Positions 6,628 to 53,573 of a DNA stretch of 64,000 nucleotides are shown here, piece by piece (position 1 is the stretch's first letter; the number at the start of each line of letters is the position of its first letter). The DNA is from Candidatus Auribacter fodinae (GTDB lineage: Bacteria; Auribacterota; Auribacteria; Auribacterales; Auribacteraceae): contig QZJZ01000071.1 of assembly GCA_003599815.1 (NCBI GenBank), positions 1-64,000 on the forward strand, read 5' to 3'. Made by a program: the position numbers and the translations under genes. The notes under the pieces are model-generated. The model was not told the DNA's origin. It saw only the letters and a list, made by a program, of their open reading frames with translations, and ran no database searches.

Positions 6628-7257
6628 TTATTTTTTCCTCGCGGCAAATCCTGCGATCGCGCTGATTATAAGCAGGATCGTTGCAGGTTCCGGAACCGGA
6701 GGCGCTTCGGTGTATGTAATGTTTATGACCGGGTTAATCCAGTATGTGTATAACTGTCCGCTGTATTCGGTGGCTACGCGCAAGGAATAACCGGAATGTG
6801 ATTTCATTGCTGTTAAATCGGCTTTCAGGTACGCGGTAACATCCTGAACGCTGGTGCCGTAAGGGTTGTTTTCTGTAATCGAAGACACGGAGGCATCGAA
6901 TTCACCGGAAAGGTACGTGCCGTCTTCGTTATCATTCATGGCGTAAAAGTTGTAACTCGCTGAGCCCTGGTCTCCCATAATGTCGCCGAGAACAAAAGTG
7001 GCGCTCTCAATAGAGTTTGCGGTGATTCCCTGACTATATAGTGACTGCAGGCTGTATTCCGCAAAGGCACGGGTTATGGCTCCAACATAAGAATAGTAGC
7101 TGGATATTTTCAGGCTGGGATAATTTGTTCCATTTTGCTCTATTGAGTGCACATACCTGTCAGCATTGCCCAGTGTGATAGTCGCGGCGTTGAGAGTTAG
7201 CGCTGAAAACATGCATACAGCCATTACCACGGTGATAAAAATCGCCTTGAGTTTCAT
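6628..7257 (-). CDS. PEP-CTERM sorting-domain protein
   Basis: A 209-residue exported protein. It has a signal peptide (MKLKAIFITVVMAVCMFSAL, ending near ALTLNAA) and ends with the tripartite PEP-CTERM signal: VPEPAT, a hydrophobic helix ILLIISAIAGF and a basic tail AARKK. Such proteins are recognised by exosortase and processed at the PEP motif, usually in species making extracellular polysaccharide. The body between residues 25 and 180 is polar and rich in serine, tyrosine and asparagine; VTAYLKADLTAM and GYSLRVATEYSG suggest a beta-sandwich of the DNRLRE/TGF-like type seen in other PEP-CTERM proteins, but I do not recognise a named domain. It has its own promoter and terminator. No exosortase gene lies in the window. 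Confidence 0.88.
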   Translation of the reverse strand: MKLKAIFITVVMAVCMFSALTLNAATITLGNADRYVHSIEQNGTNYPSLKISSYYSYVGAITRAFAEYSLQSLYSQGITANSIESATFVLGDIMGDQGSASYNFYAMNDNEDGTYLSGEFDASVSSITENNPYGTSVQDVTAYLKADLTAMKSHSGYSLRVATEYSGQLYTYWINPVINITYTEAPPVPEPATILLIISAIAGFAARKK

Positions 7258-7598: not shown

Positions 7599-8609
7599 TC
7601 ACGTCAGCATGAAGAAATCAACGCTTTCCGTGTACCCCGCCTGAACCAGAAAATCCCGTATTTTCCGGCGCGCCCCATCCGCAGACACATAACATATCAC
7701 CGGATACCCCGAATAATCCCGTAACCCTTCAGGAGCAATCACCGGAATGCCGTCGCGGTGTGTGCCGATGATCTTGCGGTCTACATCAACATACGCGGCG
7801 AACTCAATACCGTACGGTTTAAGTAAAGATGAAAACTGCCTCGATTTCCGTTTTGCGCCCCATATCACAACTTTCCCTGAATTTTTCTTGATAAGCCCGG
7901 CAAGGTAATGCGCTTTGCACCGGTGAAAATTGATCAGCGAGTACCGGTCGTCTACTCTTGATAACCGATCCTGCCTGTCGCGCCAGTAATGGAGCACTTT
8001 CCGCACTTTGCCGAACCGAACGCCAGACCGCAACAGCCGGAGCCATAGGTCGTAATCCTCAGGCCAACCGTGATCCTGATACCCTCCGGCACAACGGATT
8101 GTATCTGTGCGTGTCATTACAGACGGGTGGGCGATAGGCGACTCTACAAACATCTCGCGCCGCATGTCCTCATGCGTGCACAGGCTGTTCAGCCACTGCA
8201 TGTATGCGGAGTAGCCTTCGCGTATGCCGGTTTCCGAGAATTTTTCTACAAGACAGCTCACCACGTCAATATCCGTATTTTTTTCCAGAAAGGCAACTTG
8301 TTCAGCGAGCCGCTCAGGGTGCATACGGTCGTCAGCGTCCATCCTGGCGATAAACGGGGCACGGGCGGTTTCAATACCGCTGTTGAGCGACGGTATAATG
8401 CCTTTATTCGTATCATTGCGGATAACCCGTACTCTGGCATCGGACTGGGCGAACCGGCTGACTATGGCAGGTGTACGGTCGGTCGATCCGTCATCAACAA
8501 TGATCAGTTCGAAATCGGACAAAGATTGAGCGAAAACAGAGGAAACCGCCTCAAAAAGAAAGCGCTCCCCGTTATACACAGGGAGCGCCACGGAAACTAT
8601 GGGGTTCAT
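7599..8609 (-). CDS. Family-2 glycosyltransferase with C-terminal Rossmann-like domain
   Basis: A 336-residue GT2 enzyme with a GT-A fold. N-terminal signatures are SVALPVYNGERFLFEAVSS, ELIIVDDGSTDRT near residues 34-46, and the metal-binding ARMDADDRM near 87-95; GWPEDYDLWLRL near 180 is the acceptor-loop ED motif. After residue 240 a second, Rossmann-like segment begins (KVVIWGAKRKSRQFSSLLK, then AAYVDVDRKIIG), as in sugar-modifying PglD-type N-terminal domains. This fusion suggests modification of a surface glycan, but donor and acceptor are unknown. The stop of the small lipoprotein gene at 8616 lies six bases upstream of its start, so it is transcribed with the CsgG/FlgT-like cluster. 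Confidence 0.85.
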   Translation of the reverse strand: MNPIVSVALPVYNGERFLFEAVSSVFAQSLSDFELIIVDDGSTDRTPAIVSRFAQSDARVRVIRNDTNKGIIPSLNSGIETARAPFIARMDADDRMHPERLAEQVAFLEKNTDIDVVSCLVEKFSETGIREGYSAYMQWLNSLCTHEDMRREMFVESPIAHPSVMTRTDTIRCAGGYQDHGWPEDYDLWLRLLRSGVRFGKVRKVLHYWRDRQDRLSRVDDRYSLINFHRCKAHYLAGLIKKNSGKVVIWGAKRKSRQFSSLLKPYGIEFAAYVDVDRKIIGTHRDGIPVIAPEGLRDYSGYPVICYVSADGARRKIRDFLVQAGYTESVDFFMLT

Positions 8610-8615
8610 TTGATT

Positions 8616-8816
8616 TTATCGTCCGTACGGGTTCCGTTCGGGCGTGCCTCCGGCATAGCCTTCAGCGGCTCCTTCCGGCACGGACTGAACCACACCCAGC
8701 GCGCCGCCGATAGGCTGTCCCAAATTGTGTGCGGCCTGATGCGGGTCAGCGGCGCATCCGGCAAGTACTGTTAAGAATCCTGTAAGAACAAGCACTGCAA
8801 GTATGCGAATAACCAT
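8616..8816 (-). CDS. Small lipoprotein
   Basis: A 66-residue lipoprotein. The hydrophobic signal ILAVLVLTGFLTV is followed by lipobox LAGC and a mature part AADPHQAAHNLGQPIG that is rich in glycine, alanine and proline. The ATG at 8814-8816 is chosen over the ATG at 8823-8825 because the ribosome-binding site AAGGAG directly abuts the upstream ATG and is at nine-base spacing from this one. Its mature sequence differs from the four sister lipoproteins upstream at 10965-11692. It lies between the CsgG-like gene and the GT2 gene. Confidence 0.75.
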   Translation of the reverse strand: MVIRILAVLVLTGFLTVLAGCAADPHQAAHNLGQPIGGALGVVQSVPEGAAEGYAGGTPERNPYGR

Positions 8817-8830
8817 GTAAGGCATCTCCT

Positions 8831-9742
8831 TTATTGTCCCCTTACGATATCTTTAGCCTGAAAACCTGACCCGGACACAGCCACGGCTTTCGAGAATTTT
8901 TCCTGAACGTTGACTACTTCAATCACACCGATTTGCGATGTGTCTGAACCGAGGAGCATACCTGTATCAGGATCAATGAAATCCTCGCCTTTGTGGAATA
9001 CGGTAAACTGGTCGCCGACCTGAATTCCGGTGTTGGTTCCGCTGTTAATGATAATCGTATCACCTTGAACAGTAACGACTTTTCCTTCCCACGGAATGGC
9101 TCTCATTTTCTGAGTGACATAATCAACAGCGTTATCAATGGCGATTTGTGTCGCTTTGCCGAGCGGAGTTTTGGAGAAACCTTCCTGTCCGAACCCGAAT
9201 CCACTGCCGGAAAAATCAAATCCGAGCCCGCCTGCTTCGGCGTTACCTTCAACGCGTTGAGAATCAAGCACTTCTCCGGTTGATGTGTCGATCAGGCGGA
9301 TAATAACCGCTACATGGGCGGTTTCGCGGTTCATGTTTACGTTGAATCCTCTGATGTTCATCCCTTGTCCGCCGCCTTTTTTGCTTTCGTCGAATTCAGT
9401 GATTGCTCCGCGGATAAGTATTTGAGCGGGAGGCATTTTTCCGATACTTGCGGTTGCTCCTGCTGTGGTAGTCCTGCCGCTCGCGGCGAAATCCTGTTCC
9501 TGCAGGACGGATTCCAGAGCCTGCCGTTCCAGCACGATAAAGTTGCCGGATTGGATCAGCGCGTCGGTCAGCATATCAGCCATACCGTCACCGATTTCCC
9601 ATGAGCTGGCGGCTCCGGCTTTATTTTCAAAACTCTCGACAGCGACTAATTTTTTCAAAGCCGTTGCGGCGTAAGCGGGATGAACTGCGGCAACCAGAAC
9701 GGCGCCGAGCGCGAGACACATCAATCGTTTTCCAAACTTCAT
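8831..9742 (-). CDS. CsgG-like protein with FlgT C-terminal-type domain
   Basis: A 303-residue exported protein. A signal peptide (GKRLMCLALGAVLVAAVHPAYA) is followed by a CsgG-type domain: LVAVESFENKAG, GMADMLTDALIQSGNFIVLE, LESVLQEQDF, AQILIRGAITEF and the strand RLIDTSTGEVLDSQRVEG. The C-terminal part (about residue 220 on, GKVVTVQGDTIIINSGTNTG and VGDQFTVFHKGE) resembles the SH3-like domain of flagellar protein FlgT. In curli systems CsgG forms an outer-membrane export pore, but CsgG there is a lipoprotein; this one has no lipobox cysteine. So it is more likely a periplasmic or outer-membrane assembly factor. The start at 9742 is chosen for its spacing from GGAAGGAG; the ATG at 9751 abuts that site. 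It follows the FlgT-like gene by 27 bp. Confidence 0.8.
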   Translation of the reverse strand: MKFGKRLMCLALGAVLVAAVHPAYAATALKKLVAVESFENKAGAASSWEIGDGMADMLTDALIQSGNFIVLERQALESVLQEQDFAASGRTTTAGATASIGKMPPAQILIRGAITEFDESKKGGGQGMNIRGFNVNMNRETAHVAVIIRLIDTSTGEVLDSQRVEGNAEAGGLGFDFSGSGFGFGQEGFSKTPLGKATQIAIDNAVDYVTQKMRAIPWEGKVVTVQGDTIIINSGTNTGIQVGDQFTVFHKGEDFIDPDTGMLLGSDTSQIGVIEVVNVQEKFSKAVAVSGSGFQAKDIVRGQ

Positions 9743-9769
9743 TTTAAACATCTCCTTCCGTGTGTATAT

Positions 9770-10978
9770 CTATTCAATATCAAATAACCGTATTTCAAGA
9801 CGGTTCGGCGTTTTGGCGGTGAGTTCCACGCCAACAGTAGTGAATTCTTCCAGCCGTTCGTCAAATGTTTTATGTACAGATCCTTCGACGTCAAGGTCAA
9901 TCAGCATAATTTCATCCTGAAAACTGCGTTCGTTTATCGACGCGACACCGCGTATCTGTTTCAGCTCGTTTTTAAACAGGCGGCGCCGCGCGCCGTTTAC
10001 ATTGGATATGACCAGTTGTATGGGAGCTGTATTATAAACGTCACTGCGCCACTGGTCAAGTATGCGGGGCACAAGTGTTTCGGCGAGTTGCACACCTGCC
10101 GCGCCCAGCGCCTGCCGTGCGGCTTCCATTTTGCCTGAACCCTGTCCTTCGCCGGGTTTGCGCCAGTCGCTTTGAGCGTTGGCAGTGGCGATAACCTGCC
10201 CTGTATCAGTATTAACAGCGCGAGCGTTGATCTGAGCCTGATAATAGAAGACCGGCGTGCCGTAGGGCATTGCGGAATCGACAAGGTCTGCGGACGCCTC
10301 GCCGATGATAACCACTTCAGCGCCAAACTGCCTGCCCAGAGCCGCGGCTTTATCGGGATCAGCGTAATTGAGTGCCGCGTCACGTTGTTTTATCATTTCG
10401 AGCTGTCCTTTGTCGATCATCGGGAAACCTTTGGAGAGCAGTTTCTGTTCCAGCGACGATTGGGCGACACCGCCCTGAACTTGTCCGCCCCAGACCGGAT
10501 CGGTCTGGTCGACCATTTCCCTGAAGATGATGATAACGCGGGGATTACCTTTTTCGTTTTTGATGATATTGAGGGCTTTTAAGTCTTTTTCCAGAGGCGC
10601 GAGAGCGACAGCGGCACGCACTCCGATACGATAAATCTGCCCGTCTCCGTTGTTGTCGGAGATAACGGAGTAGTCTGTTACGTATCCTTTTACCTGAGTA
10701 TACACTTCGTCGTTGAGGAGCTGAAAGTTTTGTGTCATGGATTCCGAGTCAACGAGGCTCCCCACACCTTGTTCAACAGCCCGCCGCAACGCGCGTTTTG
10801 TCGCTTCGTCGCGGGCACGGAGCAACGCTTCCTGCCCTTCGCCGACAACCGCGGCAATGCCTTCCGCCTCTATCTCTTTCGCGGGTATATCCTGCGCAAG
10901 GAGGGGATTAGGCATGCACAACGGGATGGCAATCAGGCATACGCATGCAAACAGCAATTTCAGTTTATTCAACGACAT
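9770..10978 (-). CDS. FlgT-like periplasmic protein
   Basis: A 402-residue exported protein starting with a signal peptide (LKLLFACVCLIAIPLCMPNPLLAQ). After it comes an LPP20/FlgT N-terminal-type domain: AEGIAAVVGEGQEALLRARD and EATKRALRRAVEQGVGSLVD, then YVTDYSVISDN. The middle (about 145-300) reads like FlgT: VIIIFREMVDQTDP, LEQKLLSKGFPMIDKGQ and GAEVVIIGEASAD. FlgT makes a ring around the flagellar basal body in Vibrio, but no flagellar gene is in the window, so the family name only describes the fold. The ATG at 10976-10978 is preferred over the TTG at 10990. Its start overlaps the end of the preceding lipoprotein gene by 14 bp, which implies translational coupling. Confidence 0.78.
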   Translation of the reverse strand: MSLNKLKLLFACVCLIAIPLCMPNPLLAQDIPAKEIEAEGIAAVVGEGQEALLRARDEATKRALRRAVEQGVGSLVDSESMTQNFQLLNDEVYTQVKGYVTDYSVISDNNGDGQIYRIGVRAAVALAPLEKDLKALNIIKNEKGNPRVIIIFREMVDQTDPVWGGQVQGGVAQSSLEQKLLSKGFPMIDKGQLEMIKQRDAALNYADPDKAAALGRQFGAEVVIIGEASADLVDSAMPYGTPVFYYQAQINARAVNTDTGQVIATANAQSDWRKPGEGQGSGKMEAARQALGAAGVQLAETLVPRILDQWRSDVYNTAPIQLVISNVNGARRRLFKNELKQIRGVASINERSFQDEIMLIDLDVEGSVHKTFDERLEEFTTVGVELTAKTPNRLEIRLFDIE

Positions 10979-11147
10979 AGTTTCTCTCAATTCTTTGTTC
11001 TGTACGTATAGGAACGTTTTTTTCGACTTTGTATGTTCCCGGCGGTAATCCGGTTGATCCGTCTTCGTGATAATAGGTATTGTAGGAGCATCCGGAAACG
11101 AAGGTTCCTAACGCCGCCAGAATTATCAGTACACAGAATGCCCGCAT
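10965..11147 (-). CDS. Small lipoprotein, sister family member D
   Basis: A 60-residue lipoprotein with signal MRAFCVLIILAALGTF, lipobox VSGC and mature start CSYNTYYHEDG. The mature part continues with a charged stretch KVEKNVPIRTEQRIERNYVVE. The ATG at 11147 is preceded by GGAGG at eight-base spacing. It shares the pattern Cys-(Ser/Thr)-Tyr-(Asn/Glu)-x-x-Tyr right after the lipidated cysteine with the three lipoproteins upstream, and the ending YVVE with the neighbour at 11194. It overlaps the FlgT-like gene start. Confidence 0.78.
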   Translation of the reverse strand: MRAFCVLIILAALGTFVSGCSYNTYYHEDGSTGLPPGTYKVEKNVPIRTEQRIERNYVVE

Positions 11148-11193
11148 GGTATAATCCTCCAAATATACTATTTAGACCGCGTCTTTCCGGCGG

Positions 11194-11343
11194 TTATTCA
11201 ACAACATAATGTTCGCGGACAACAACGCCTTCGCTCGCCGCTTCTTCTTTTCCGTAATAGTGTTTTTCGTATGTACAACCCATAAGAGCAACGATACATA
11301 CACCCATACAGCATACAACCAGTAACAGACGGTTTGTGTTCAT
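11194..11343 (-). CDS. Small lipoprotein, sister family member C
   Basis: A 49-residue lipoprotein: signal MNTNRLLLVVCCMGVCIVA, lipobox LMGC, mature start CTYEKHYYGKEEAAS and ending REHYVVE. The longer frame reaching 11424 has no ribosome-binding site and runs through the end of the neighbouring lipoprotein gene, so the ATG at 11341-11343, preceded by GAGGGT, is chosen. It shares the CTYxxHYY start and the YVVE end with its neighbours. Confidence 0.75.
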   Translation of the reverse strand: MNTNRLLLVVCCMGVCIVALMGCTYEKHYYGKEEAASEGVVVREHYVVE

Positions 11344-11386
11344 AATATACCCTCTTTTTTTAAAGACTGGTAAATGTTTCAAAAGT

Positions 11387-11512
11387 TCATTGTCCGCTTG
11401 CGCCGACAGCGGGAGGAGGAACATGATAATATTCGTTATATGTACAGCCGATGATTGTTGTCGCCAGTAACGCGCTGAGCGCGATCACCAACAGCAGAGT
11501 ACGCGATGCCAT
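11387..11512 (-). CDS. Small lipoprotein, sister family member B
   Basis: A 41-residue lipoprotein: signal MASRTLLLVIALSALLATT, lipobox IIGC, mature start CTYNEYYHVPPP and end GASGQ. The ATG at 11510-11512 follows AAGGAG at eight-base spacing. Its mature part is only 18 residues. It lies between two sister genes and is easily missed because of its length. Confidence 0.72.
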   Translation of the reverse strand: MASRTLLLVIALSALLATTIIGCTYNEYYHVPPPAVGASGQ

Positions 11513-11560
11513 TGTTTTTTCTCCTTGGTAGTTTATTTCGGTACCGCTACATTCAATAGA

Positions 11561-11692
11561 TTAATACCGTTCCTGAGTCCTGAACTCTTCCATACTGCCG
11601 GGGTAATAATGTTCATTGTACGTACAACCGGCAACATACATTACCGCAAGTCCAAGTGCACACAGAAGAATCAGCGTTCGAAACAGTTTCAT
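11561..11692 (-). CDS. Small lipoprotein, sister family member A
   Basis: A 43-residue lipoprotein: signal MKLFRTLILLCALGLAVMY, lipobox VAGC, mature start CTYNEHYYPGS, end RTQERY. The ATG at 11690-11692 follows AAGGAG at seven-base spacing. It is the first of four sister genes on the minus strand. A 107-bp AT-rich gap separates it from the LPP20 repeat gene upstream and could hold an extra promoter. Confidence 0.74.
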   Translation of the reverse strand: MKLFRTLILLCALGLAVMYVAGCTYNEHYYPGSMEEFRTQERY

Positions 11693-11799
11693 ACACGGCT
11701 CCTTGTTTCAGTGAAAAAGTTATATTTGTTACACATCGAACATGATTCATATAATAAAATTATTCGTGCAATAATAAAAGAATAAATTTCATACTTATT

Positions 11800-13143
11800 T
11801 TATCTGCGTTCCTGCCCGATGAGATACCATAATTCTTCAAGGTCAACCTCAACGGTCACTTCTACACTGCCGTCCTCATTGTAAACCGGCTCGCCGATTC
11901 TTCGCGCGCCGGAGAGAAATGCGGTTACTTCCGTGCTGACCCGGTCGTCCTGAGTGACATAATCGCGGATAGTTGTTTGTGAATCGATGTTGATTCCGTA
12001 TATCTGTTCCACCAGATTCCTGCGCGCGTCGATTTCAGCGGCTCGTTCCGCGTTGACGCGCGCGGCGGGGCCTTGTTCGCCGCGGTACGGCACACCCACG
12101 CCGGTTGCGATGATGGTCTGTCTCGCCCAGTCAGGGACATTGCTCGCCGGAGCCGGGGCAACAGGCTGAGCCTGAACAGGAGGTGTGAAGAAATCGGATT
12201 CGGCTACTGTTCCCGTCCCGGTCGCCTGAATCCGTTTTTTTTCTTTTACATCAATGGTTTTTTCAAAATCCACGGTACGGAAAATGTCACGTTTAAAGAA
12301 ATGCTCTTTTTGAACGAGATGCTGCTGCATGGTGGTCAGTTCCTTGACCACATCCTGAATGGTAACCTGCACATCCACTTCAACAATGCCTTCAGGGTGG
12401 TACCTGTACGGGCTGATCTGCTTGATCCCTTTGATAAACGTGTCAAGGTTGGTTCTGACAGTATCGCTTTCAGTGATGAAGTCACGTACATAGGTATCGC
12501 CGGTGATCTGAAGCCCTTCAACCCGTTCTGCAAGGTTACGCCGCGCGTCGGTCAGGGCGGCGCGTTCCGCTTTGAGCCGCCCTTGTGCGGTAACATTATC
12601 CCAGCCGGGCATGTTCGCGAAATCTGAATCCTTGTAAGAACCATATGTTCCCGAACCGTTGTCCGAGGATGCCTGAGGCGCGCCGGTGTTAGCAGTACCC
12701 GTAGCGATAAACTCTTTTTTCACGACATATTCTTTCATTGAGTTTGTTTCAAGCGGCGGCTGGTCGGGCCCGCGGTAATAGCTGATACGTGAAATCGCTT
12801 CCATTACCTGAGCGAGTGTAACCTGCACATCCACTTCAGCGGTGATAGATCCGTCCGTTTCTGTGGTAAACCGTGGTTCGCCGAGCACTTTGGCTCCCTG
12901 AATGAAATCGTCGAAATGCGTGCTGATCTGATCGTTTTCTGACACAAAGTCGCGCACATAGGTGTTGGCGTTGATCTGCAGGCCTTTGATCATCTCGCTA
13001 AGCTGACGGTAGGCGTCCACCTGAGCCGCCCTTTTGACTTTGAGTATCCGCTGAGCGTGTGTTTCCGCTGAGAGCCGGGGCGTCATTGTTCCCGAAAGTA
13101 TGCCGATGACGCTGATTACAGTAAGAATTTCAGATATTCTCAT
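11800..13143 (-). CDS. Exported protein with three LPP20-type domains
   Basis: A 447-residue exported protein with a signal peptide ending near LSAE (residue 26). The body holds three copies of an LPP20/FlgT-N-type domain at about 31-112, 187-264 and 362-437. Each copy has the series RAA-x-x-DA(Y/R)R(Q/N)L, then G(L/I)xI near an (V/I)RD(F/Y)(V/I) strand, then GEP or the equivalent, then an EVDVQVT strand. Copies two and three are preceded by ATGT or ATGVG lead-ins, and proline-rich linkers separate them. LPP20 proteins are outer-membrane-associated; in most species each carries one copy. The ATG is preceded by AAGGAG. It lies 17 bp after the single-domain LPP20 gene upstream. No cysteine lipobox is present, so it should be periplasmic. 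Confidence 0.8.
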   Translation of the reverse strand: MRISEILTVISVIGILSGTMTPRLSAETHAQRILKVKRAAQVDAYRQLSEMIKGLQINANTYVRDFVSENDQISTHFDDFIQGAKVLGEPRFTTETDGSITAEVDVQVTLAQVMEAISRISYYRGPDQPPLETNSMKEYVVKKEFIATGTANTGAPQASSDNGSGTYGSYKDSDFANMPGWDNVTAQGRLKAERAALTDARRNLAERVEGLQITGDTYVRDFITESDTVRTNLDTFIKGIKQISPYRYHPEGIVEVDVQVTIQDVVKELTTMQQHLVQKEHFFKRDIFRTVDFEKTIDVKEKKRIQATGTGTVAESDFFTPPVQAQPVAPAPASNVPDWARQTIIATGVGVPYRGEQGPAARVNAERAAEIDARRNLVEQIYGINIDSQTTIRDYVTQDDRVSTEVTAFLSGARRIGEPVYNEDGSVEVTVEVDLEELWYLIGQERR

Positions 13144-13160
13144 ACATTAATTCTCCTTGC

Positions 13161-13688
13161 TTATTTATTCCATGAGTGCCATTCTTTATAAGAAACAAAA
13201 TCAACATTATTCTGAATCCGTTCGTATTCCTCGGCGGAGATTTCCTGAATCCGTACGCCGTTCTTGATAAAATGGTCGTAAATACGGTCTGTCACATTAA
13301 AAAAGAGCACCATTTCCACAAATGCTGACTTTTCCGTTTCTGATGTATATTCATCGTACACCGCCGCGCCGCTGAGAAATCCATGTACGGCATATTCTCC
13401 ATCCTGTATACTGTTTTGCGATGCGGGCAGTTGCGTTACCAGTTGACGGTAGGCGTCAACCCGCGCCGCCCGTTTTGCCATCAGCCATGCCTGAGACCTT
13501 GAAAACCGCCTGTTCCCAGTTGCGTTGCCATAACCGGCAACGTGGAGTATCCCGTAGCGGTTGTTCATCAGGTCGGTATATATATTGAGTACCGGATCCA
13601 TGCGGGATGCGGATGATTGCGCGAGGCCGGGCACGGCAAACAGAGAAACTATCACGAATATCAGGCAGGTTCGGTATATAATATTCAT
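13161..13688 (-). CDS. LPP20-like exported protein
   Basis: A 175-residue exported protein. The signal peptide MNIIYRTCLIFVIVSLFAV ends near GLAQ; the ATG at 13686-13688 follows AAAGGGAC, and the longer frame to 13775 lacks a ribosome-binding site. One LPP20-type domain is seen: LHVAGYGNATGNRRF, then LMAKRAARVDAYRQLVTQLP, which is the same motif found three times in the next gene, and a VEMVLFFNV strand. It is the first gene of the minus-strand envelope cluster and is divergent from the radical SAM gene at 13825. Confidence 0.72.
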   Translation of the reverse strand: MNIIYRTCLIFVIVSLFAVPGLAQSSASRMDPVLNIYTDLMNNRYGILHVAGYGNATGNRRFSRSQAWLMAKRAARVDAYRQLVTQLPASQNSIQDGEYAVHGFLSGAAVYDEYTSETEKSAFVEMVLFFNVTDRIYDHFIKNGVRIQEISAEEYERIQNNVDFVSYKEWHSWNK

Positions 13689-13824
13689 GAATGTCCCTTT
13701 CTTCAAATTGAACAAAATTGCAATTATGATACCAAATTTATAAAGTACCACTTTTAATTTCTGAAACCAATGCATTTCTTGTTAAGACGTGCGAAATAAA
13801 AGGTGTATTCGTAAAGATAATGCC

Positions 13825-37785: not shown

Positions 37786-38313
37786 TTATTGCAGAATCAC
37801 TTTGGTTATTATCATCTCAGTTTTAAGTACATCCGGCTGGCTGGTGCTGGCGGAAATCTGAAGGCGGGTAATTTTAAGTGCTGTCTCAGAGTTCTGCATA
37901 TCGTAAATAAATTTTATCAGCGCCATGATATCCGCTTCAGCTTCCAGTTCTATTACATAATATTTATAGAATTCCTCATCCTTGATTTGTTGTGGTTTCA
38001 TATCATTGATATGAAGTCGGTTGCTTCGTGCGGTGTTTTCGATATTCTTCAGGATCTGTGCGGTTTTTTCCTGATCGGACCCTTCGATTTTAAGGCGTCC
38101 TTCGTAGGCTTTATACTCCACCTCAATGCTTTTTGCCCTGCTCAGGATAAGTTCACTGCGCTGTAACTGTTTAGTTAGGTTGCTGATACGGTTGTCAAGC
38201 CCTGTCCAGTAATTCCACATCGGCTCAAGCGCATAAAAGTAAAGGCCGATGGCGGCAAGAAAAGAGATGGTTAGCGTAAGAAGTGTTTTTTCACGTTTGT
38301 TAAGCTGGCGCAT
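37786..38313 (-). CDS. gspM: Type II secretion protein M (GspM)
   Basis: A 175-residue inner-membrane protein with a short cytoplasmic N-terminus, one membrane helix (about residues 11-31, LLTLTISFLAAIGLYFYALE) and a coiled coil from about residue 40 leading to a ferredoxin-like fold (VIELEAEADIMALIKFIYDM, TRLQISAS). This matches GspM, which partners with GspL in the inner-membrane platform. It starts after AACGGAG and nine bases after the gspL stop. It is the last secretion gene of the operon. Confidence 0.78.
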   Translation of the reverse strand: MRQLNKREKTLLTLTISFLAAIGLYFYALEPMWNYWTGLDNRISNLTKQLQRSELILSRAKSIEVEYKAYEGRLKIEGSDQEKTAQILKNIENTARSNRLHINDMKPQQIKDEEFYKYYVIELEAEADIMALIKFIYDMQNSETALKITRLQISASTSQPDVLKTEMIITKVILQ

Positions 38314-38322
38314 AATACTCCG

Positions 38323-39891
38323 TTATAACGAGTCTTCGGTTTTGATTAGTGAACATTGAATCTCAAAATCAACGATTTCTTTCGATCCGAGCTGTCGCCG
38401 TTTCACTCCGCGCGACGAGACTTTCTCAAAGTACGGTGAATTTTCCAGTTCCGGTATAAGTTCAAAAACGTCCGACATGGTGTGCGCGGTTCCTTTCAGC
38501 ACAATATATTTTGATTCGTCATACAAAAAGGCGGTCAGGTATATTTTTTCCGGCACGACGCGGAACAATTCCCGTAAAAAGTCAAGACTGCTTCTGTCGC
38601 CGCCGACTTGTTCGTCGATCACATTTACTTTACTGCGTTTTAGTTCCAGATCTTTTACTTTCGGGGCGATCTGATTGATTTGTGTTTCCAGATACCCGAT
38701 CATTTTGGTTTTACGCGCCATTTCAGCGTAAAAAGCGTATGTTCCGCTGAGCAGAAGTGCGGCAAGCAGTACGCCCGCAACCGCGAATTGAGCAGACCGG
38801 AGCCGCTGTTTTCGTTTGTCTTTGATATCCTGCGGAATCATATCGATTTGTTTTTCACGTGCAGGAATAATCAGCCCGATAGGAGCCATAAGCGATATTT
38901 CTTTACCGTTTATGGTAAGTTTTTCTTTCAGGTTCGCCAAAGCCGGTATTTTGGTGATGATATTGAAAGTCTCCACAGGAACCTGAAACCTGCTTCGCAC
39001 GTTGCGGTCTATGTTGTGGAAATTGCTGACGCCGCCGCTGAGCACGATTTTCTCGATATAATAATTTTCGTGTTCCCGTGAAAACACGGCGAATGATCTG
39101 CGCAGTTCTTCTATCAGTTCAGACTGCCAGTTGATGTTTGCTGATTCCGCCTGAAATTTTTTCTCTTTCAGGACAAGATGGAGAATCCCCAGCGTGATGC
39201 CCCTGCTGAATACAAGCTGTTTGCCGCAGATTATCTGAATGGTCGTGTTGGTGTAGTCAATATCGACCAGCGCCACAGCACTCTTTTTTCCGGTTGCTGT
39301 CTGAGGTTCGGATGCGGGAGCCTGTTCTTCCTCTTTTTTACTATCAAGATGAAAATACGCGCGTAATATTGCCTGGGAATTGACATCAACCCGTTCCGGG
39401 TAAACGCCCGCGTCTTCCAGTGTATCGATAGTCTGATAAATGACATTTTTATGGGCGATTACCATCATGGCGGTGGAGTAGCCTGCTTCATTCAGGTCTA
39501 CGATCTCAAAGTCGACAGCCATATCCTCAGGGCTGTACGGTATTTGTTTAATCGCCTGAAAAGAAACCATTTCGCTCAATTCTGCCGGGTCGGTGGAAGG
39601 GAGTTCCATGAACCGGATGGTGCTCAAGCTTCTGGGAAAGCAGGTGGTGACGGTTTTCGCTTTAAATTTGTTGTTATGTAAAAATGCACGGAGAATACCG
39701 GGTATTTCCGCGTTGGAAAAGTAGTCCAACGCGGCTACTGCTATATTGCTGATAACGACAGCCCCGTCTTTCTTAAGGCACATTTCAACGGCTTTGGCAC
39801 AGCCGGAATCGACCTCTATACTTGTCCGTGGTTTTAACGCGTACGAGGGATACCGTTTTTTCTTGTCTTTCTTGTTTTTTTTGTCTGCCAT
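38323..39891 (-). CDS. gspL: Type II secretion protein L (PilM-PilN-like GspL)
   Basis: A 522-residue protein combining a PilM-like actin-fold domain and a PilN-like domain. The N-terminal part has SIEVDSGCAKAVEMCL, then VSFQAIKQIPYSPEDMAVDF and VALVDIDYTNTTIQIICGKQ and KIVLSGGVSNFHNID. One membrane helix follows (about 372-390, FAVAGVLLAALLLSGTYAFY), then a coiled coil and the PilN-type fold FLRELFRVVPEKIYLTAFLY. GspL anchors the ATPase GspE to the membrane platform. The start at 39891 is chosen; ATG at 39912 is possible. Long basic stretch KNKKDKKKR at the start is unusual. Confidence 0.82.
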   Translation of the reverse strand: MADKKNKKDKKKRYPSYALKPRTSIEVDSGCAKAVEMCLKKDGAVVISNIAVAALDYFSNAEIPGILRAFLHNNKFKAKTVTTCFPRSLSTIRFMELPSTDPAELSEMVSFQAIKQIPYSPEDMAVDFEIVDLNEAGYSTAMMVIAHKNVIYQTIDTLEDAGVYPERVDVNSQAILRAYFHLDSKKEEEQAPASEPQTATGKKSAVALVDIDYTNTTIQIICGKQLVFSRGITLGILHLVLKEKKFQAESANINWQSELIEELRRSFAVFSREHENYYIEKIVLSGGVSNFHNIDRNVRSRFQVPVETFNIITKIPALANLKEKLTINGKEISLMAPIGLIIPAREKQIDMIPQDIKDKRKQRLRSAQFAVAGVLLAALLLSGTYAFYAEMARKTKMIGYLETQINQIAPKVKDLELKRSKVNVIDEQVGGDRSSLDFLRELFRVVPEKIYLTAFLYDESKYIVLKGTAHTMSDVFELIPELENSPYFEKVSSRGVKRRQLGSKEIVDFEIQCSLIKTEDSL

Positions 39892-39970
39892 ATTTCGTCT
39901 CATCAACCACATGCGGTTGTTTTAAATAGTCTGTGTGCAGGAAGCGTAAGCAGTCTATCACACAACAGTA

Positions 39971-41098
39971 TCATTCTTCAAAGTATTTTATAATCCTCAT
40001 GGGATCATATTCTTCATCTTTTTTTTCATCGATCACGCTGAGCGTTTTGTTGCGTTCAGTCGTTGTTTTGTTTTCACGAGCGTAATCCTTTGATCTGGAA
40101 ACAATAGCGGTTACTTTTCGCTGAAGTTTCTTATCGTCAAAAGTGACTTCAGCCTCTATGCGAAAAAAATCGCTGGTAACGCCAACCAGTTTTTTTGTCC
40201 TCAGCCAGTTGAGCATGGTCATTTTGCTTGCTTCGTGTGTGCCGATGGCTGTTTCGATGTTCTGGTCTTTAAAAATCTGGTCATCTTCCGTGCCGGGCAA
40301 GCCGTCGTCGCCGTTACGGTACTCGATGATGAGCCGTATCAGGTCGTCGCGCTCGGATTTGCTCATCTCTTTCTGGTCGCTTTGCATGGCGAAGAGCGCT
40401 GACAGCACTTCACGTGAAGCGGTATTAAAATTAACGGCTCCTTTGCCCCAGAACGTGATTATATTTTTAAGCCGTGCCCTGCTTTTATTTTTGTCTGAGC
40501 TGTTGGAGAAAAAGTTTTTCAGGAAATGCAGTTCCTCCAGCAACTGGATGTTACCGTGGCGAGCTTCATACCCGTAGGTTGATTCATACCATGCGTCAAG
40601 TTCCTTGTTGCCGGAATTTTTCTGCCGCCAGTGGTCAATGACTTCGATCAGGTCGTCATCTATGCCGAATTCCTCTTCCCAGTATTCCGAGCTGAGAATT
40701 GAGGTCGGCAATACATTGATATTAATTCTCGACTCTTCATCTTCCGCGCCGTACAGGGTAATCAGCTCGTTATCGTTGGATTCCGCGGTATGGGCTACGG
40801 TCAGTTTTACCCCTTCGTCGATTTCCGATTCAAAGAAAGCGTCTGTATTGTTGCCCCATGATTCATTGTACGCGTCGACTTTGCGGTCGGAATCGTTGGC
40901 TATATGAAAAAAGACGGTATAAAGGCCCTGCTGTAACGCGTAACTCGCTTTCATTTTGTTGATATACAGGCCTGTCAGGCGCAGTTCAATAGTGCCTCTG
41001 TATCCGAGCCCAACGGCAAAAAGAGATAACAGCGCCAGCACCCATAGTGCGAGTATAATTATGGAGCCGCTGTTGATTTCTTTGGAACACAATTTCAT
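39971..41098 (-). CDS. gspK: Type II secretion minor pseudopilin K
   Basis: A 375-residue minor pseudopilin. The N-terminus has NSGSIIILALWVLALLSLFA with the prepilin peptidase region GS followed by a hydrophobic helix, then the large GspK body: ELRLTGLYINKMKASYAL, the EESRININVLPTSIL segment, and helix-hairpin-helix-like loops FNTASREVLSALFA and DDLIRLIIEYRNGDDG. GspK caps the pseudopilus tip together with I and J. It overlaps gspJ by one base and is separated from gspL by 79 bp. Confidence 0.85.
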   Translation of the reverse strand: MKLCSKEINSGSIIILALWVLALLSLFAVGLGYRGTIELRLTGLYINKMKASYALQQGLYTVFFHIANDSDRKVDAYNESWGNNTDAFFESEIDEGVKLTVAHTAESNDNELITLYGAEDEESRININVLPTSILSSEYWEEEFGIDDDLIEVIDHWRQKNSGNKELDAWYESTYGYEARHGNIQLLEELHFLKNFFSNSSDKNKSRARLKNIITFWGKGAVNFNTASREVLSALFAMQSDQKEMSKSERDDLIRLIIEYRNGDDGLPGTEDDQIFKDQNIETAIGTHEASKMTMLNWLRTKKLVGVTSDFFRIEAEVTFDDKKLQRKVTAIVSRSKDYARENKTTTERNKTLSVIDEKKDEEYDPMRIIKYFEE

Positions 41099-41796
41099 CA
41101 GAACAGCCCTTCTTCCTCTTCAGGCAATGGTTCCAGTGTGCCGTGGGGGATGAAAACAGTGCGCTTGTACGTGATGGTTTTCTTGCCCTCAGGATCTGTT
41201 TCGTCAATCATTTCTATTGAAATTTTAAGGAACTGCGGGATACGGTCTTTTACTTTCCACTCGTCTTCCCAGATAAGTACCTGTTCTTCCGTTTCGTCCT
41301 GTTCTTCGTCAGTTTCGATGTAGGCGTATTCGAAATCGAGCGATACAATACCCGGCGAGAATTCACGGGGTTTGACTTTATCGCCCTCACTGCTTTGAAG
41401 GAAGGTTTCCTGTTTGCGCGTCAGGGTTTTATGTTTATCGCGATACGATTGCCGGTCAAGTTTGTATTCGATTTTAAACAGGTTAGTGTCAAAAGTGGCT
41501 TTCGCTTCTTTCGACGCGTTGGTGACGATCATTGCCACGGGAAAATAAATCTCGTTCGCCTGCCCGACGAACTGGATATACGAAAAATACACGCAGTTTC
41601 GTATTTCGGATATCATCGTATCAAGAATTATCCGTGCTTTCTGGTGCATGTTGGAACCCTGATCCGTACGTTTCCATGACTGCACCCCGACGGATAAGGC
41701 GGCATGGATGGCGACCGAGATGGTAGCGAACAGGGAAATGGCTATCAGGAGTTCAAGCAAAGTGAAATGCGATTTTTTCAGGCGGTCAGAACTCAC
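41098..41796 (-). CDS. gspJ: Type II secretion minor pseudopilin J
   Basis: A 232-residue pseudopilin. The prepilin N-terminus KSHFTLLELLIAISLFATIS has the F-T-L-L-E cleavage motif, with the conserved glutamate at position 5 after cleavage and a hydrophobic helix. The body SVGVQSWKRTDQGSNMHQKA and ARIILDTMISEIRNCVYF fits GspJ. A KRTVFIPHGTLE strand lies near the end. It overlaps gspI by 11 bases and gspK by one, so translation is coupled. Confidence 0.85.
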   Translation of the reverse strand: MSSDRLKKSHFTLLELLIAISLFATISVAIHAALSVGVQSWKRTDQGSNMHQKARIILDTMISEIRNCVYFSYIQFVGQANEIYFPVAMIVTNASKEAKATFDTNLFKIEYKLDRQSYRDKHKTLTRKQETFLQSSEGDKVKPREFSPGIVSLDFEYAYIETDEEQDETEEQVLIWEDEWKVKDRIPQFLKISIEMIDETDPEGKKTITYKRTVFIPHGTLEPLPEEEEGLF

Positions 41797-42298
41797 TCTT
41801 GAGATCCTCCGTTTCTTCCTGAGGCAGTTCCCTGATGGTTGCTGTTGAATAGAGGAGTTCCTTGTCAGTGGACCGGTATTGCCACATGACTTTTACTGAA
41901 ATTTTTTTCAGCAGGTAAACAGCTTGCTGTGCAGTGTCTTCCGTCTCGGTTCCGGGAGGAACAGGTTCTTCAGCCATTTCTTCTTCCGTCATTTCGAATT
42001 CAGGATACACTTCCTCAACTGTCTGTTCCCACGAGTATGCTTCATAGGGATACTCAAAGGAGCCGTTGGTCAGCCCTGCGGTGATTTCCTGCTGAGAGAG
42101 TGTCTGAGCGATAATCTGTTCAATAAGCATTGACGCTTCAAGGTACTGCTGTGATATAGTTCCTGCCGCAAGGCTGGTGGCGTAAGTGCGCATTATGGCA
42201 ACGGTTCCTGCGGAAACAATCATGATTGCCAGTACCGCTTCCATGAGAAGAAATCCGTATTGGGACACGAGTTTTTTAGGGGATGCCGCCATTGTCAC
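41786..42298 (-). CDS. gspI: Type II secretion minor pseudopilin I
   Basis: A 170-residue pseudopilin. The cleavage region QYGFLLMEAVLAIMIVSAGT has G-F-x-x-x-E, with the conserved glutamate, then a hydrophobic helix. The body MRTYATSLAAGTISQQYLEA and SMLIEQIIAQTL is typical of GspI. A glutamate-rich acidic loop follows near 100-115. The start overlaps the end of gspH by four bases. Confidence 0.82.
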   Translation of the reverse strand: MTMAASPKKLVSQYGFLLMEAVLAIMIVSAGTVAIMRTYATSLAAGTISQQYLEASMLIEQIIAQTLSQQEITAGLTNGSFEYPYEAYSWEQTVEEVYPEFEMTEEEMAEEPVPPGTETEDTAQQAVYLLKKISVKVMWQYRSTDKELLYSTATIRELPQEETEDLKSEF

Positions 42299-42864
42299 AT
42301 CCTCTTTTTCTCTTTATAGAGTTTGACCAGCCCGACCGATTGTTTGGTGGTGATGGTGTACGTCTCATCGTTGGCGCCGGTAATATATATCACGCATTCG
42401 TCCGACTGCCCGTCAGGGTAGAAGGTGACATAATCTTCTTTGTCCGGTTCGTCTATGTCGAGTTCTATGTCCTGAGGAAAAAACATTTTTCTTCCGATAG
42501 AGCCTTGCAGTTCCTCGAATTCAGGTTCCTTGTCCCTGTTTCGTGAAGAGCGCCGTGACGATTTGGTTTCCTCTTCTTTTTCCGGTTCCTTAAGAGTCTC
42601 AAGGCAGTAAGCGGCGGGATCGTCTTTAAAGAAACGGACACGGTACGGCTTGCGTTCGATGATGGCCCTGTCGCGAGCGTAGTACATCAATTTCACGATG
42701 TTATAAACCGTGTTGCGGAATTTTATAGTTTCATAGGTAGAACGAAACCGGGGTACTGCGGCAACCACAATAATGCTCAGAATCAGAACGACAACAGACA
42801 GTTCTATCAGGGTAAAGCCGGCAGTGGAGCGATTAGTTTTCTTCACTCCAGTTGGTAATATCAT
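42295..42864 (-). CDS. gspH: Type II secretion pseudopilin H
   Basis: A 189-residue pseudopilin. The cleavage region STAGFTLIELSVVVLILSII has GFTLIE and a hydrophobic helix; the body AVPRFRSTYETIKFRNTVYN and YYARDRAIIERKPYRVRFF fits GspH. It also contains a charged linker EKEEETKSSRRSSRNRDKE. The ATG at 42862-42864 is chosen because AGGAGGAGGCG lies at good spacing; a longer frame to 42969 overlaps gspG fully and lacks support. The start lies within the end of gspG (32-base overlap). Confidence 0.83.
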   Translation of the reverse strand: MILPTGVKKTNRSTAGFTLIELSVVVLILSIIVVAAVPRFRSTYETIKFRNTVYNIVKLMYYARDRAIIERKPYRVRFFKDDPAAYCLETLKEPEKEEETKSSRRSSRNRDKEPEFEELQGSIGRKMFFPQDIELDIDEPDKEDYVTFYPDGQSDECVIYITGANDETYTITTKQSVGLVKLYKEKKRM

Positions 42865-43249
42865 CGCCTCCTCCTTCCTGCCCGTCCGGACCGAAGGAAT
42901 ACAGGTCGTAATCGTCCTGATTGTGTGTGCCGGGGCATTTGTACTGGTACGGGTTACCCCATGGGTCATTAAAACTTTTGGTTTTTATATAAGGGCCTTT
43001 CCATCCTTTTGCTGAACTGCTTTTCAAGGCGGTGAGCCCTTCTTCGCCGGGATATTTTCCCGTGTCGATTTCATAAAGCTGAAGTGCGGTGGCATATGCG
43101 CCGGCTATTTCGCCTTTAGCGGTCTGGACTTTGGCTTCCTGAGCACGTCCCGTGAACTTGACAACAGCCATGGTCGCCAGTACGCCAAGGATGATGACCA
43201 CCAGCATAAGTTCAACCAGTGTAAAACCTCGTTGTGACATTTTCTTCAT
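42833..43249 (-). CDS. gspG: Type II secretion major pseudopilin G
   Basis: A 138-residue major pseudopilin. The N-terminus RGFTLVELMLVVIILGVLAT is nearly the consensus, and TAKGEIAGAYATALQLYEID and TGKYPGEEGLTALKSS are GspG trademarks; the calcium-binding C-terminus shows DPWGNPYQYKCPGTHNQDDY and LYSFGPDGQEGGGDDITNW. The ATG at 43249 follows GGGAG. GspG builds the pseudopilus that pushes substrates through the secretin. It is the first pseudopilin gene after the metallopeptidase. Confidence 0.92.
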   Translation of the reverse strand: MKKMSQRGFTLVELMLVVIILGVLATMAVVKFTGRAQEAKVQTAKGEIAGAYATALQLYEIDTGKYPGEEGLTALKSSSAKGWKGPYIKTKSFNDPWGNPYQYKCPGTHNQDDYDLYSFGPDGQEGGGDDITNWSEEN

Positions 43250-43338
43250 TCTCACAATCTCCCTTTTTGTGATATGTGTATGAGAAACAAACCGCAGTAG
43301 ATTCTTATAGTATAGCAATACATATTCTTAGACAACAG

Positions 43339-44124
43339 TTATTCTCCTGAGTTACACCATTTTTGCTCCAGCAAGGCAATGGTGCGTATTGAGGACGGAT
43401 ACGCGAAGCGCAGGGCTTCCTCGACAGTTTTTCCTGCCCGGAGCTGGCGTATGAATTCGGCGAACTGCTGTTTGCCGTACGAGTCAACCATGAACCGGAT
43501 AAGATAATATGACTGAAGGTAAAACAGGGATATTTTCCGGTCATCCTCAACCTGTATAAGCGATTTGATCCGCTGGATTTCTGCGAGCGGGATATATGCC
43601 CCGTCTTTCAGTATGCCGCGCATGGCGTTGTCCTGTTCCGTCCTGTCGATATTTTCCTGAAACTGGGCGAGCCCTTCATCGATCCAGAGCGGCACATTAG
43701 GGTTGTCTTTAATGTATTCCCGCAGGATAATGTGCGTGAGCTCATGAGGCAGAAGCGAGTTTAGAAAATTTTCAGCCCACGGGAACGCGTACAGGCGTTT
43801 ACTGCGGTAATCAACGTGGCCTCCCGACCAGTCCGGCTGGCGGGTAACGGCGCAGTATTCGTCATGAGACTCGAACAGTATTATGGTGCATCGGTTGTCC
43901 CATGTCCAGAAACCGGAGAACCTGTCCAGTTCCAGATCCGTTGTGATTGAGTCGTAGTATTTCTCCGCCGCTGTTTCCACTTCTTTTGCGAACGATGTGC
44001 CGCACCGGTACTGTATAATAAAATGGTCGCTTTTAATTTCTTCAAAAGAAAGCTCTTGCGGAAAACAGGATGTCTGTGCGGCGAAGCAAAAGAATGTGAG
44101 TATATACAAGAAAGAACGTCTCAT
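43339..44124 (-). CDS. Zinc metallopeptidase of the MA/gluzincin type
   Basis: A 261-residue exported protein. A signal peptide (RRSFLYILTFFCFAAQTSC) is followed by a gluzincin-type domain with the zinc site HELTH at about residue 149 (LLPHELTHIILREYI) and the third ligand in WIDEGLAQFQE. Such proteins are peptidases with unknown substrates. It lies between gspF and gspG, and its start is next to the gspF stop, so it is made with the secretion operon. It could process secreted proteins or be a secreted enzyme itself. It is not a standard T2SS subunit. Confidence 0.8.
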   Translation of the reverse strand: MRRSFLYILTFFCFAAQTSCFPQELSFEEIKSDHFIIQYRCGTSFAKEVETAAEKYYDSITTDLELDRFSGFWTWDNRCTIILFESHDEYCAVTRQPDWSGGHVDYRSKRLYAFPWAENFLNSLLPHELTHIILREYIKDNPNVPLWIDEGLAQFQENIDRTEQDNAMRGILKDGAYIPLAEIQRIKSLIQVEDDRKISLFYLQSYYLIRFMVDSYGKQQFAEFIRQLRAGKTVEEALRFAYPSSIRTIALLEQKWCNSGE

Positions 44125-44125
44125 A

Positions 44126-45388: not shown

Positions 45389-45389
45389 A

Positions 45390-52761: not shown

Positions 52762-52792
52762 AGTAAGACCTCCTCTCACCTATAATTCGACA

Positions 52793-53500: not shown

Positions 53501-53573
53501 CGCCAAAATCTCCTTTGTAGCAAACCGCAGAAGTAAAACACTTAAGCCGAATAATGTATAAAGTTCTATACAT

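What the first reader, a model, noticed from the sequence alone, without database searches (positions are those of the whole stretch)
8616..13688. CsgG-, FlgT- and LPP20-type envelope cluster without flagella or curli
Nine minus-strand genes combine two LPP20 proteins, five small lipoproteins, a FlgT-like protein and a CsgG-like protein with a FlgT-C-type end. FlgT and CsgG families are known from flagellar rings and curli export, but no flagellin, FlgO/P, curlin or nucleator gene is present. The recurrent ARxxA-DARRNL domain in four copies and coupled reading frames suggest a single outer-membrane assembly or secretion complex that is not among the described systems. A glycosyltransferase ends the operon. 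This is the best candidate for a novel system in the window.
Basis: partly seen in the sequence, partly recalled or inferred. Interest (0 to 1): 0.8.

Follow-up and report, generated by a model that had tools for sequence, protein, structure and literature searches.

The report
Flagellum-independent outer-membrane ring operon
A conserved gene cluster in a little-known bacterial phylum encodes relatives of the rings that brace some flagella and of the curli export pore, together with tiny lipid-anchored peptides, yet it occurs in many relatives without flagella, which suggests an undescribed outer-membrane structure of its own.

Summary
The nine genes are real, and the core of the operon is conserved across the phylum Ca. 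Auribacterota. One premise is wrong. This genome does have flagella (flagellin, FlgG/H/I/K, FliD/P/R, FlhA/B on other contigs), but at least 13 relatives carry the operon without FlhA or FlgH. Outside the phylum the FlgT-like gene is, if anything, depleted in genomes with FlhA (10/37 against 155/340 overall). Curlin and CsgF are absent. One relative has both true curli and a separate copy of this module.

The order is: single SHS2/LPP20-like protein, triple SHS2 protein, tiny lipoproteins, FlgT-like protein, CsgG+FlgT_C protein. The triple repeats and the FlgT-like N-domain align through the hairpin insert that forms rings in Campylobacter FlgP. Other phyla have a TPR-SLH lipoprotein in the lipoprotein slot and often FecR after CsgG.

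New here: in the Auribacterota loci with the triple-SHS2 gene, tiny lipoproteins end in a ...VVE-type tail (20 of the 21 such ORFs among 4,988), while the ring-type proteins mostly lack lipid anchors.

Best reading: an outer-membrane ring scaffold related to FlgO/P/T disks, anchored in trans by the small lipoproteins. Whether the CsgG-like part is an open export pore is unproven. New variant of known families; function untested.

The parts
13161..13688 (-). LPPa: secreted single SHS2/LPP20-like protein (175 aa), first gene of the operon, shortened hairpin insert
   Evidence: phmmer to the triple-LPP20 protein 1.3e-5; to C. jejuni FlgP 1.6e-6 with Z=6; no Pfam LPP20 match
11800..13143 (-). LPP3: three tandem SHS2/LPP20 (FlgP-type) domains, 447 aa, no lipobox
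   Evidence: PF02169 1.4e-16, 3 stretches; 41-62% identical in 13 relatives; ungapped alignment to FlgP through the hairpin insert
11561..11692 (-). lipA: tiny lipoprotein (43 aa), ...AGCTYNEHYY...
   Evidence: lipobox ORF; similar to lipB-D and to relatives
11387..11512 (-). lipB: tiny lipoprotein (41 aa), ...GCTYNEYYH...
11194..11343 (-). lipC: tiny lipoprotein (49 aa) with C-terminal tail GVVVREHYVVE
10965..11147 (-). lipD: tiny lipoprotein (60 aa) with C-terminal tail RIERNYVVE; overlaps the FlgT-like gene by 14 bp
9770..10978 (-). FlgT-like protein (402 aa): SHS2/FlgT_N domain + LpoB/CsgG-like middle domain + C-terminal alpha/beta domain, no lipobox
   Evidence: FlgT_N 1.7e-4; family profile to FlgP 3.1e-8 and LpoB 2.9e-4; AF2 pLDDT 84, Foldseek FlgT in LPHT ring 9.2e-11
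8831..9751 (-). CsgG-like protein with C-terminal FlgT_C domain (306 aa), no lipobox
   Evidence: CsgG 1.9e-42, FlgT_C 5.7e-9; AF2 pLDDT 76, Foldseek FlgT 6.4e-17, CsgG 7.3e-11
8616..8825 (-). lipE: small lipoprotein (69 aa), found otherwise only in the same-family genome G001
7599..8609 (-). family-2 glycosyltransferase co-directional with the operon; same position in G001 only, accessory
   Evidence: PF00535 2e-35
13719..13734 (-). possible sigma-54 (-24/-12) promoter TGGTATCATAATTGCA; G001 and G030 have TGGCACG-N4-TTGCG
   Evidence: p about 0.01 by shuffling for the window; fewer than 1 in 300 for G001 and G030; position

Best explanation
The operon encodes one outer-membrane-associated ring complex that is related to the flagellar H-ring/basal-disk proteins (FlgP, FlgT) and to CsgG but works independently of the flagellum. 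Proposed mechanism: the SHS2 proteins (LPPa, the three-domain LPP3, and the N-domain of the FlgT-like protein) polymerise side by side through their hairpin inserts into one or more periplasmic rings under the outer membrane. The CsgG/FlgT_C protein forms the central ring. The FlgT-like protein bridges the two through its SHS2 and LpoB/CsgG-like domains. The large proteins mostly lack a lipid anchor. The tiny lipoproteins supply it in trans: their lipid sits in the outer membrane and their conserved ~11-residue ...VVxExxVVE tail docks on the ring, probably by beta-strand addition. In other phyla a TPR-SLH lipoprotein takes that slot and would tie the ring to peptidoglycan. Shown: gene content, order, conservation, domain homology, dissociation from flagella and curli, the tail motif, the missing lipoboxes. 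Inferred: ring formation, docking by the tail, outer-membrane location, scaffold function.
For: Conserved order LPPa-LPP3-small lipoproteins-FlgT-CsgG in most of the 19 Auribacterota genomes with the FlgT-like gene. All three LPP3 domains and FlgT_N align ungapped with C. jejuni FlgP across the hairpin insert; that insert correlates with ring formation (PMC12222027), and it holds many of LPP3's invariant positions. Best fold matches of both large proteins are FlgT, alone or in the solved LPHT ring, then CsgG. VV[EQKHD] tails: 20 of 21 such ORFs among 4,988 small six-frame ORFs are these lipoproteins. Lipobox found in FlgT 0/20, LPPa 0/14, LPP3 2/20, CsgG 2/24 Auribacterota frames. A TPR-SLH lipoprotein occupies the same slot in other phyla, and no full-length ortholog of it was found in Auribacterota. 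Flagellum-independent.
Against: No oligomer was modelled and no experiment exists. LPPa lacks about 11 residues of the hairpin insert. lipA and lipB do not carry the tail. G216 has LPP3 without an obvious tailed lipoprotein. The CsgG domain could equally be an export pore. Foldseek TM-scores for the FlgT-like model are low (0.32), so its domain arrangement is uncertain.
Confidence: 0.42

Rival explanations
1. A curli-like export system: the CsgG-type protein is an open outer-membrane pore that secretes an unidentified unfolded substrate, with the SHS2 rings and tiny lipoproteins acting as gate or assembly factors in place of CsgE/CsgF.
For: CsgG family match of 145 bits. The TM1-equivalent segment aligns with E. 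coli CsgG by profile and is modelled as a long hairpin. Some genomes have two or three CsgG genes in a row.
Against: No CsgF or curlin in the genome, and no substrate gene recurs in the neighbourhoods. The TM2 region is low-confidence. The alternation test for membrane strands does not differ from shuffles. Most copies lack the lipid anchor of E. coli CsgG. A genome with real curli keeps this module separately.
Confidence: 0.28
2. A peptidoglycan-synthesis or envelope-maintenance regulator: the LpoB/CsgG/TolB-N-type domains contact cell-wall enzymes from the outer membrane.
For: The FlgT-like middle domain matches LpoB structures by profile at 2.9e-4. TPR-SLH partners in other phyla. FecR and CHASE2-cyclase neighbours suggest envelope signalling.
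Against: LpoB similarity is weaker than CsgG or FlgP similarity, and no cell-wall enzyme gene was recognised as recurring in the operon.
Confidence: 0.14
3. An H-ring/basal-disk accessory of this organism's own flagellum, encoded away from the flagellar loci and kept after flagellum loss in relatives.
For: This genome and five other Auribacterota with the operon have FlhA and FlgH. Within the phylum the operon is somewhat enriched with FlhA (6/19 against 1/25, p=0.03). FlgO/P/T genes have adjacent locus tags in Vibrio and Shewanella (PMC6375700).
Against: Thirteen Auribacterota genomes, nine of them at least 92% complete, have the operon and neither FlhA nor FlgH. Outside the phylum the association is negative (odds ratio 0.40, p=0.022). 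A flagellar remnant would not be expected to stay 44-50% identical and syntenic in aflagellate lineages.
Confidence: 0.08

Closest known systems
Flagellar H-ring / basal disk proteins FlgO, FlgP, FlgT (Vibrio, Campylobacter)
   Same: FlgP-type SHS2 domains with the hairpin insert; FlgT_N and FlgT_C domains; a CsgG-like middle fold; genes next to each other
   Different: FlgT domains split over two proteins; triple SHS2 protein; no FlgO match; large proteins mostly not lipoproteins; present in genomes without flagella; extra tailed lipoproteins
Curli secretion system, CsgG (type VIII secretion)
   Same: CsgG domain 1.9e-42; TM1-equivalent segment alignable
   Different: no curlin or CsgF; C-terminal FlgT_C domain; mostly signal peptidase I signals; pore not established
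LPP20 family (H. pylori Lpp20, PF02169)
   Same: SHS2 domain, Pfam match over cut-off for LPP3
   Different: three copies in one chain, not lipidated in the window protein, FlgP-type hairpin insert
LpoB-type peptidoglycan-synthase activators
   Same: middle domain of the FlgT-like protein matches LpoB structures weakly
   Different: different architecture; no recurrent link to cell-wall enzymes
TsaP (type IV pilus secretin-associated)
   Same: the C-terminal FlgT_C domain of the CsgG-like family matches a LysM/TsaP chain at 5.9e-11 and TsaP at 7.7e-10
   Different: no LysM domain; CsgG domain instead
LipL46 (Leptospira outer-membrane lipoprotein)
   Same: FlgT-like protein matches NF033164 at 1.1e-8
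   Different: 34 bits, far below the family cut-off of 400; LipL46 function unclear

Membership tests
Curli / type VIII secretion | CsgG domain | tested here: met
   PF03783 1.9e-42
Curli / type VIII secretion | curlin repeats (CsgA/CsgB) in the genome | tested here: not met
   PF07012 absent in G000; found only in G015 of 59 genomes
Curli / type VIII secretion | CsgF | tested here: not met
   PF10614 absent in G000; only G015
Curli / type VIII secretion | CsgE | not tested
   not searched genome-wide; no match to any operon protein
Curli / type VIII secretion | lipidated CsgG | tested here: not met
   no lipobox in the window protein; 2 of 24 Auribacterota frames flagged, one of them doubtful
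Curli / type VIII secretion | two amphipathic transmembrane hairpins forming a pore | tested here: inconclusive
   hairpin 1 modelled, hairpin 2 below pLDDT 50; alternation not above shuffles
Flagellar H-ring / basal disk (FlgO/P/T) | SHS2 domain with FlgP-type hairpin insert | tested here: met
   LPP3 d1-d3 and FlgT_N align ungapped to 9HMF FlgP through the insert; LPPa insert is shorter
Flagellar H-ring / basal disk (FlgO/P/T) | FlgT N-M-C domains in one chain | tested here: not met
   FlgT_N in 9770-10978, FlgT_C in 8831-9751
Flagellar H-ring / basal disk (FlgO/P/T) | FlgO (PF17680) | tested here: not met
   no match among the operon proteins at E<=1
Flagellar H-ring / basal disk (FlgO/P/T) | occurs with flagella | tested here: not met
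   13 Auribacterota genomes with the operon lack FlhA and FlgH; outside the phylum odds ratio 0.40
Flagellar H-ring / basal disk (FlgO/P/T) | assembles into a ring | not testable with these tools
   needs EM or complex prediction
LPP20 (PF02169) | profile match over cut-off | tested here: met
   LPP3 61.1 bits against 25.9; LPPa has no match
LpoB activators | LpoB family match over cut-off | tested here: not met
   CsgG-like 18.6 bits, FlgT-like 15.0 bits against cut-off 22.3

The most novel reading that the evidence does not exclude
A widespread, undescribed outer-membrane machine distinct from curli and flagella: FlgP-type SHS2 rings around a CsgG-type channel, with the rings lipid-anchored in trans by micro-lipoproteins whose VVE tails act as docking peptides (replaced by a TPR-SLH lipoprotein in other phyla), from which flagellar FlgT may have been recruited.
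Probability: 0.2. Interest if true: 0.8.

Novelty: new variant of a known kind. Interest (0 to 1): 0.56.

Why it matters
FlgP, FlgT and CsgG relatives are usually read as flagellar or curli parts. A syntenic module carrying them in aflagellate, curli-free bacteria of many lineages means such annotation misleads. It also suggests that the flagellar outer-membrane disks and the curli pore may have drawn on an older, independent family of outer-membrane ring proteins, which bears on how accessory rings were added to flagellar motors. The conserved VVE-tailed micro-lipoproteins are a specific, easily tested lead for how non-lipidated rings could be attached to the outer membrane.

Tried and rejected
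Flagellar accessory as the general function: rejected by co-occurrence. Curli: rejected by absence of CsgF and curlin, with an internal control in G015. Amphipathic-strand statistic to prove CsgG pore hairpins: not above shuffles, so the pore claim is left open. Glycosyltransferase and lipE as part of the system: seen only in G001 of the same family, treated as accessory. TPR-SLH ortholog hidden elsewhere in Auribacterota: only generic TPR matches that do not cover the SLH part among the listed rows. Sigma-54 control as a general feature: a divergent sigma-54 activator family lies near 11 loci, but a convincing promoter was found only in G001 and G030. Literature: no paper combining these families was found.
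Full report
What is there. The window is bases 1-64000 of contig C3 of a 3.5-Mb draft genome, probably a metagenome assembly like its relatives. Relatives found by sequence carry record titles of Ca. Auribacterota, UBP3 and Ca. Tritonobacter, so the phylum is Ca. Auribacterota of the PVC group. On the minus strand, from 13688 down to 8616, lie nine genes: LPPa (175 aa), LPP3 (447 aa), four tiny lipoproteins lipA-D (41-60 aa), a FlgT-like protein (402 aa), a CsgG-like protein (306 aa) and lipE (69 aa). A family-2 glycosyltransferase follows 6 bp on. Gaps are 5-107 bp; lipD and the FlgT-like gene overlap by 14 bp.

Conservation. The FlgT-like gene has full-length relatives in 18 other Auribacterota genomes at about 35-60% identity. 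The order LPPa-LPP3-gap-FlgT-CsgG is kept in most of them, allowing for contig ends. Three lineages (G007, G014, G015) have FlgT-CsgG without LPP3. LPP3 is 41-62% identical over 13 relatives. In all, 100 of 384 sampled genomes carry a match to the FlgT-like profile; 37 of those outside the phylum are nearly full length by my count. In 21 such neighbourhoods, 16 have an LPP20 gene and 12 a CsgG gene within 6 kb on the same strand; several loci are cut by contig ends. The recurrent form there is LPP20 protein, TPR-SLH lipoprotein, FlgT-like, CsgG/FlgT_C, and often a FecR protein.

Flagella and curli. FlhA lies on contig C17 with FliP, FliR, FlhB and FlhF; flagellin, FliD, FlgG, FlgH, FlgI and FlgK lie on C2. 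Two genomes of the same family agree, so mis-binning is unlikely. None of these genes is beside the operon, and by eye the rest of C3 shows none. But G004, G005, G008, G011, G012, G016, G019, G020, G023, G026, G027, G030 and G035 have the FlgT-like gene (nearly all with the flanking genes) and neither FlhA nor FlgH; nine of these genomes are at least 92% complete. Outside the phylum FlhA is found in 10 of 37 module-bearing genomes against 155 of 340 overall (odds ratio 0.40, p=0.022). FlhA also scores type III secretion, so these counts overstate flagella. Inside the phylum there is a mild positive association (p=0.03), on few genomes and without correction for relatedness. Curlin and CsgF are absent from this genome; of 59 genomes only G015 has them, beside a strong curli CsgG (4.2e-65) on contig C120, while its FlgT/CsgG module sits on C292. 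This is an internal control that the two CsgG types are separate. A published curli survey already noted that CsgG belongs to a larger paralogous family (PMC3521004).

What the proteins are. LPP3 has three PF02169 stretches. Its domains match C. jejuni FlgP (PDB 9HMF, PMC12222027), and the alignment runs without gaps from the SHS2 helix through the beta-hairpin insert. In that paper ring formation in this family correlates with the insert, which builds the continuous sheet of FlgP rings. FlgT_N of the FlgT-like protein also has the full-length insert; LPPa has it shortened by about 11 residues. The FlgT-like family matches FlgP at 3e-8 and LpoB at 3e-4 by profile. Its model (pLDDT 84) best matches FlgT in the Vibrio LPHT ring, 9.2e-11, with a low TM-score of 0.32. 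The CsgG-like protein matches CsgG at 1.9e-42 and FlgT_C at 5.7e-9. Its model (pLDDT 76) best matches FlgT (6.4e-17, 1.5e-16) and then CsgG (7.3e-11). The FlgT_C part also matches TsaP-type chains of type IV pili (5.9e-11 and 7.7e-10) by profile. The first membrane-hairpin equivalent of CsgG is modelled; the second is below pLDDT 50; and a test for alternating polar and apolar residues gave nothing above shuffles. A pore is therefore possible but not shown.

The tiny lipoproteins. In the Auribacterota loci with LPP3 and a readable gap to FlgT, the gap holds one or more short lipobox ORFs. At least one in each ends in a tail such as GVVVREHYVVE, QVVVETREVVE, VPVQSETVVE or ETVVEQQEVVE. Of 4,988 six-frame ORFs of 30-130 aa in the loci examined, 21 end in VV[EQKHD], and 20 of those 21 are these lipoproteins; G023 has a TIVE variant. 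In the window lipC and lipD have the tail and lipA and lipB do not. The 14-bp overlap with the FlgT-like gene could constrain lipD at the DNA level, but most lineages have no such overlap, so the tail is kept as protein. No such lipoprotein was seen in the three lineages without LPP3. In G216, outside the phylum, LPP3 occurs with only 20 bp before FlgT and no tailed lipoprotein was seen. By a simple lipobox rule the large proteins are mostly not lipidated: FlgT-like 0 of 20, LPPa 0 of 14, LPP3 2 of 20, CsgG 2 of 24 frames, one of the last doubtful. E. coli CsgG and FlgP are lipoproteins (established knowledge). In other phyla the same slot holds a TPR-SLH lipoprotein, of which Auribacterota show only generic TPR matches. 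The simplest reading is that the lipid anchor is provided in trans from this slot.

Regulation and neighbours. In many relatives a sigma-54 activator (GAF-AAA-Fis) is divergent from LPPa. G001 and G030 have a textbook -24/-12 site upstream of LPPa; the window has a weaker one at 13734-13719. FecR-LPP20, DUF3307 and CHASE2-cyclase genes recur on the far side in several families, which hints at envelope sensing.

Mechanism and judgement. Most likely the operon builds an outer-membrane-associated ring scaffold related to FlgO/P/T disks, with a CsgG-type central ring, attached by the tailed lipoproteins (0.42). The main rival is a curli-like exporter with unknown substrate (0.28), then an LpoB-like cell-wall regulator (0.14), then a flagellar accessory (0.08). 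Homology, synteny, independence from flagella and curli, the tail motif and the missing lipoboxes are shown. Rings, docking, location and function are inferred.

Novelty. The protein families are known and no published description of the combination was found. The library holds only open-licence papers, so prior description elsewhere cannot be excluded. It is best filed as a new variant built from known families.

Noticed in passing
G000:C17, about 13812 to at least 39998 (L072:13812-20000 + L073:1-19998): Two adjoining 20-kb stretches are each filled (the first from 13812 on) by one open frame, together over 8,700 codons: probably a giant-protein gene, as reported for other PVC lineages (PMC12057145). 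Continuity of the frame across the junction was not checked.
   Followed up: no
L053:2405-17788 (G000:C3, 64000 + offset): Another very large open reading frame, 5,127 aa, on the same contig to the right of the window.
   Followed up: no
G015:C120, 4540-9033: A true curli cluster (curlin repeats, CsgF, CsgG at 4.2e-65) in one Auribacterota genome, apparently the only one in the phylum sample.
   Followed up: partly
window 6628-7257, 52057-52779, 52793-53506: Three small secreted proteins ending in PEP-CTERM-like sorting signals (VPEPA...RRK type), suggesting an exosortase system.
   Followed up: no
window 37786-47522: Type II secretion / type IV pilus-like operon (GspE, GspF, pseudopilins, GspL/M-like) judged from the translations only.
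   Followed up: no
L031, L039, L040, L042, L043 near the operon: In several Auribacterota families a FecR+LPP20 protein, a DUF3307 protein and a CHASE2-adenylate cyclase lie beside the operon in opposite orientation.
   Followed up: partly
L029 10301-12225, L035 5-1971, L039 7509-9469, L121 3372-6346: Tandem duplication or triplication of the CsgG-like gene in several lineages; in G001 the second copy has a lipobox and the first does not.
   Followed up: partly
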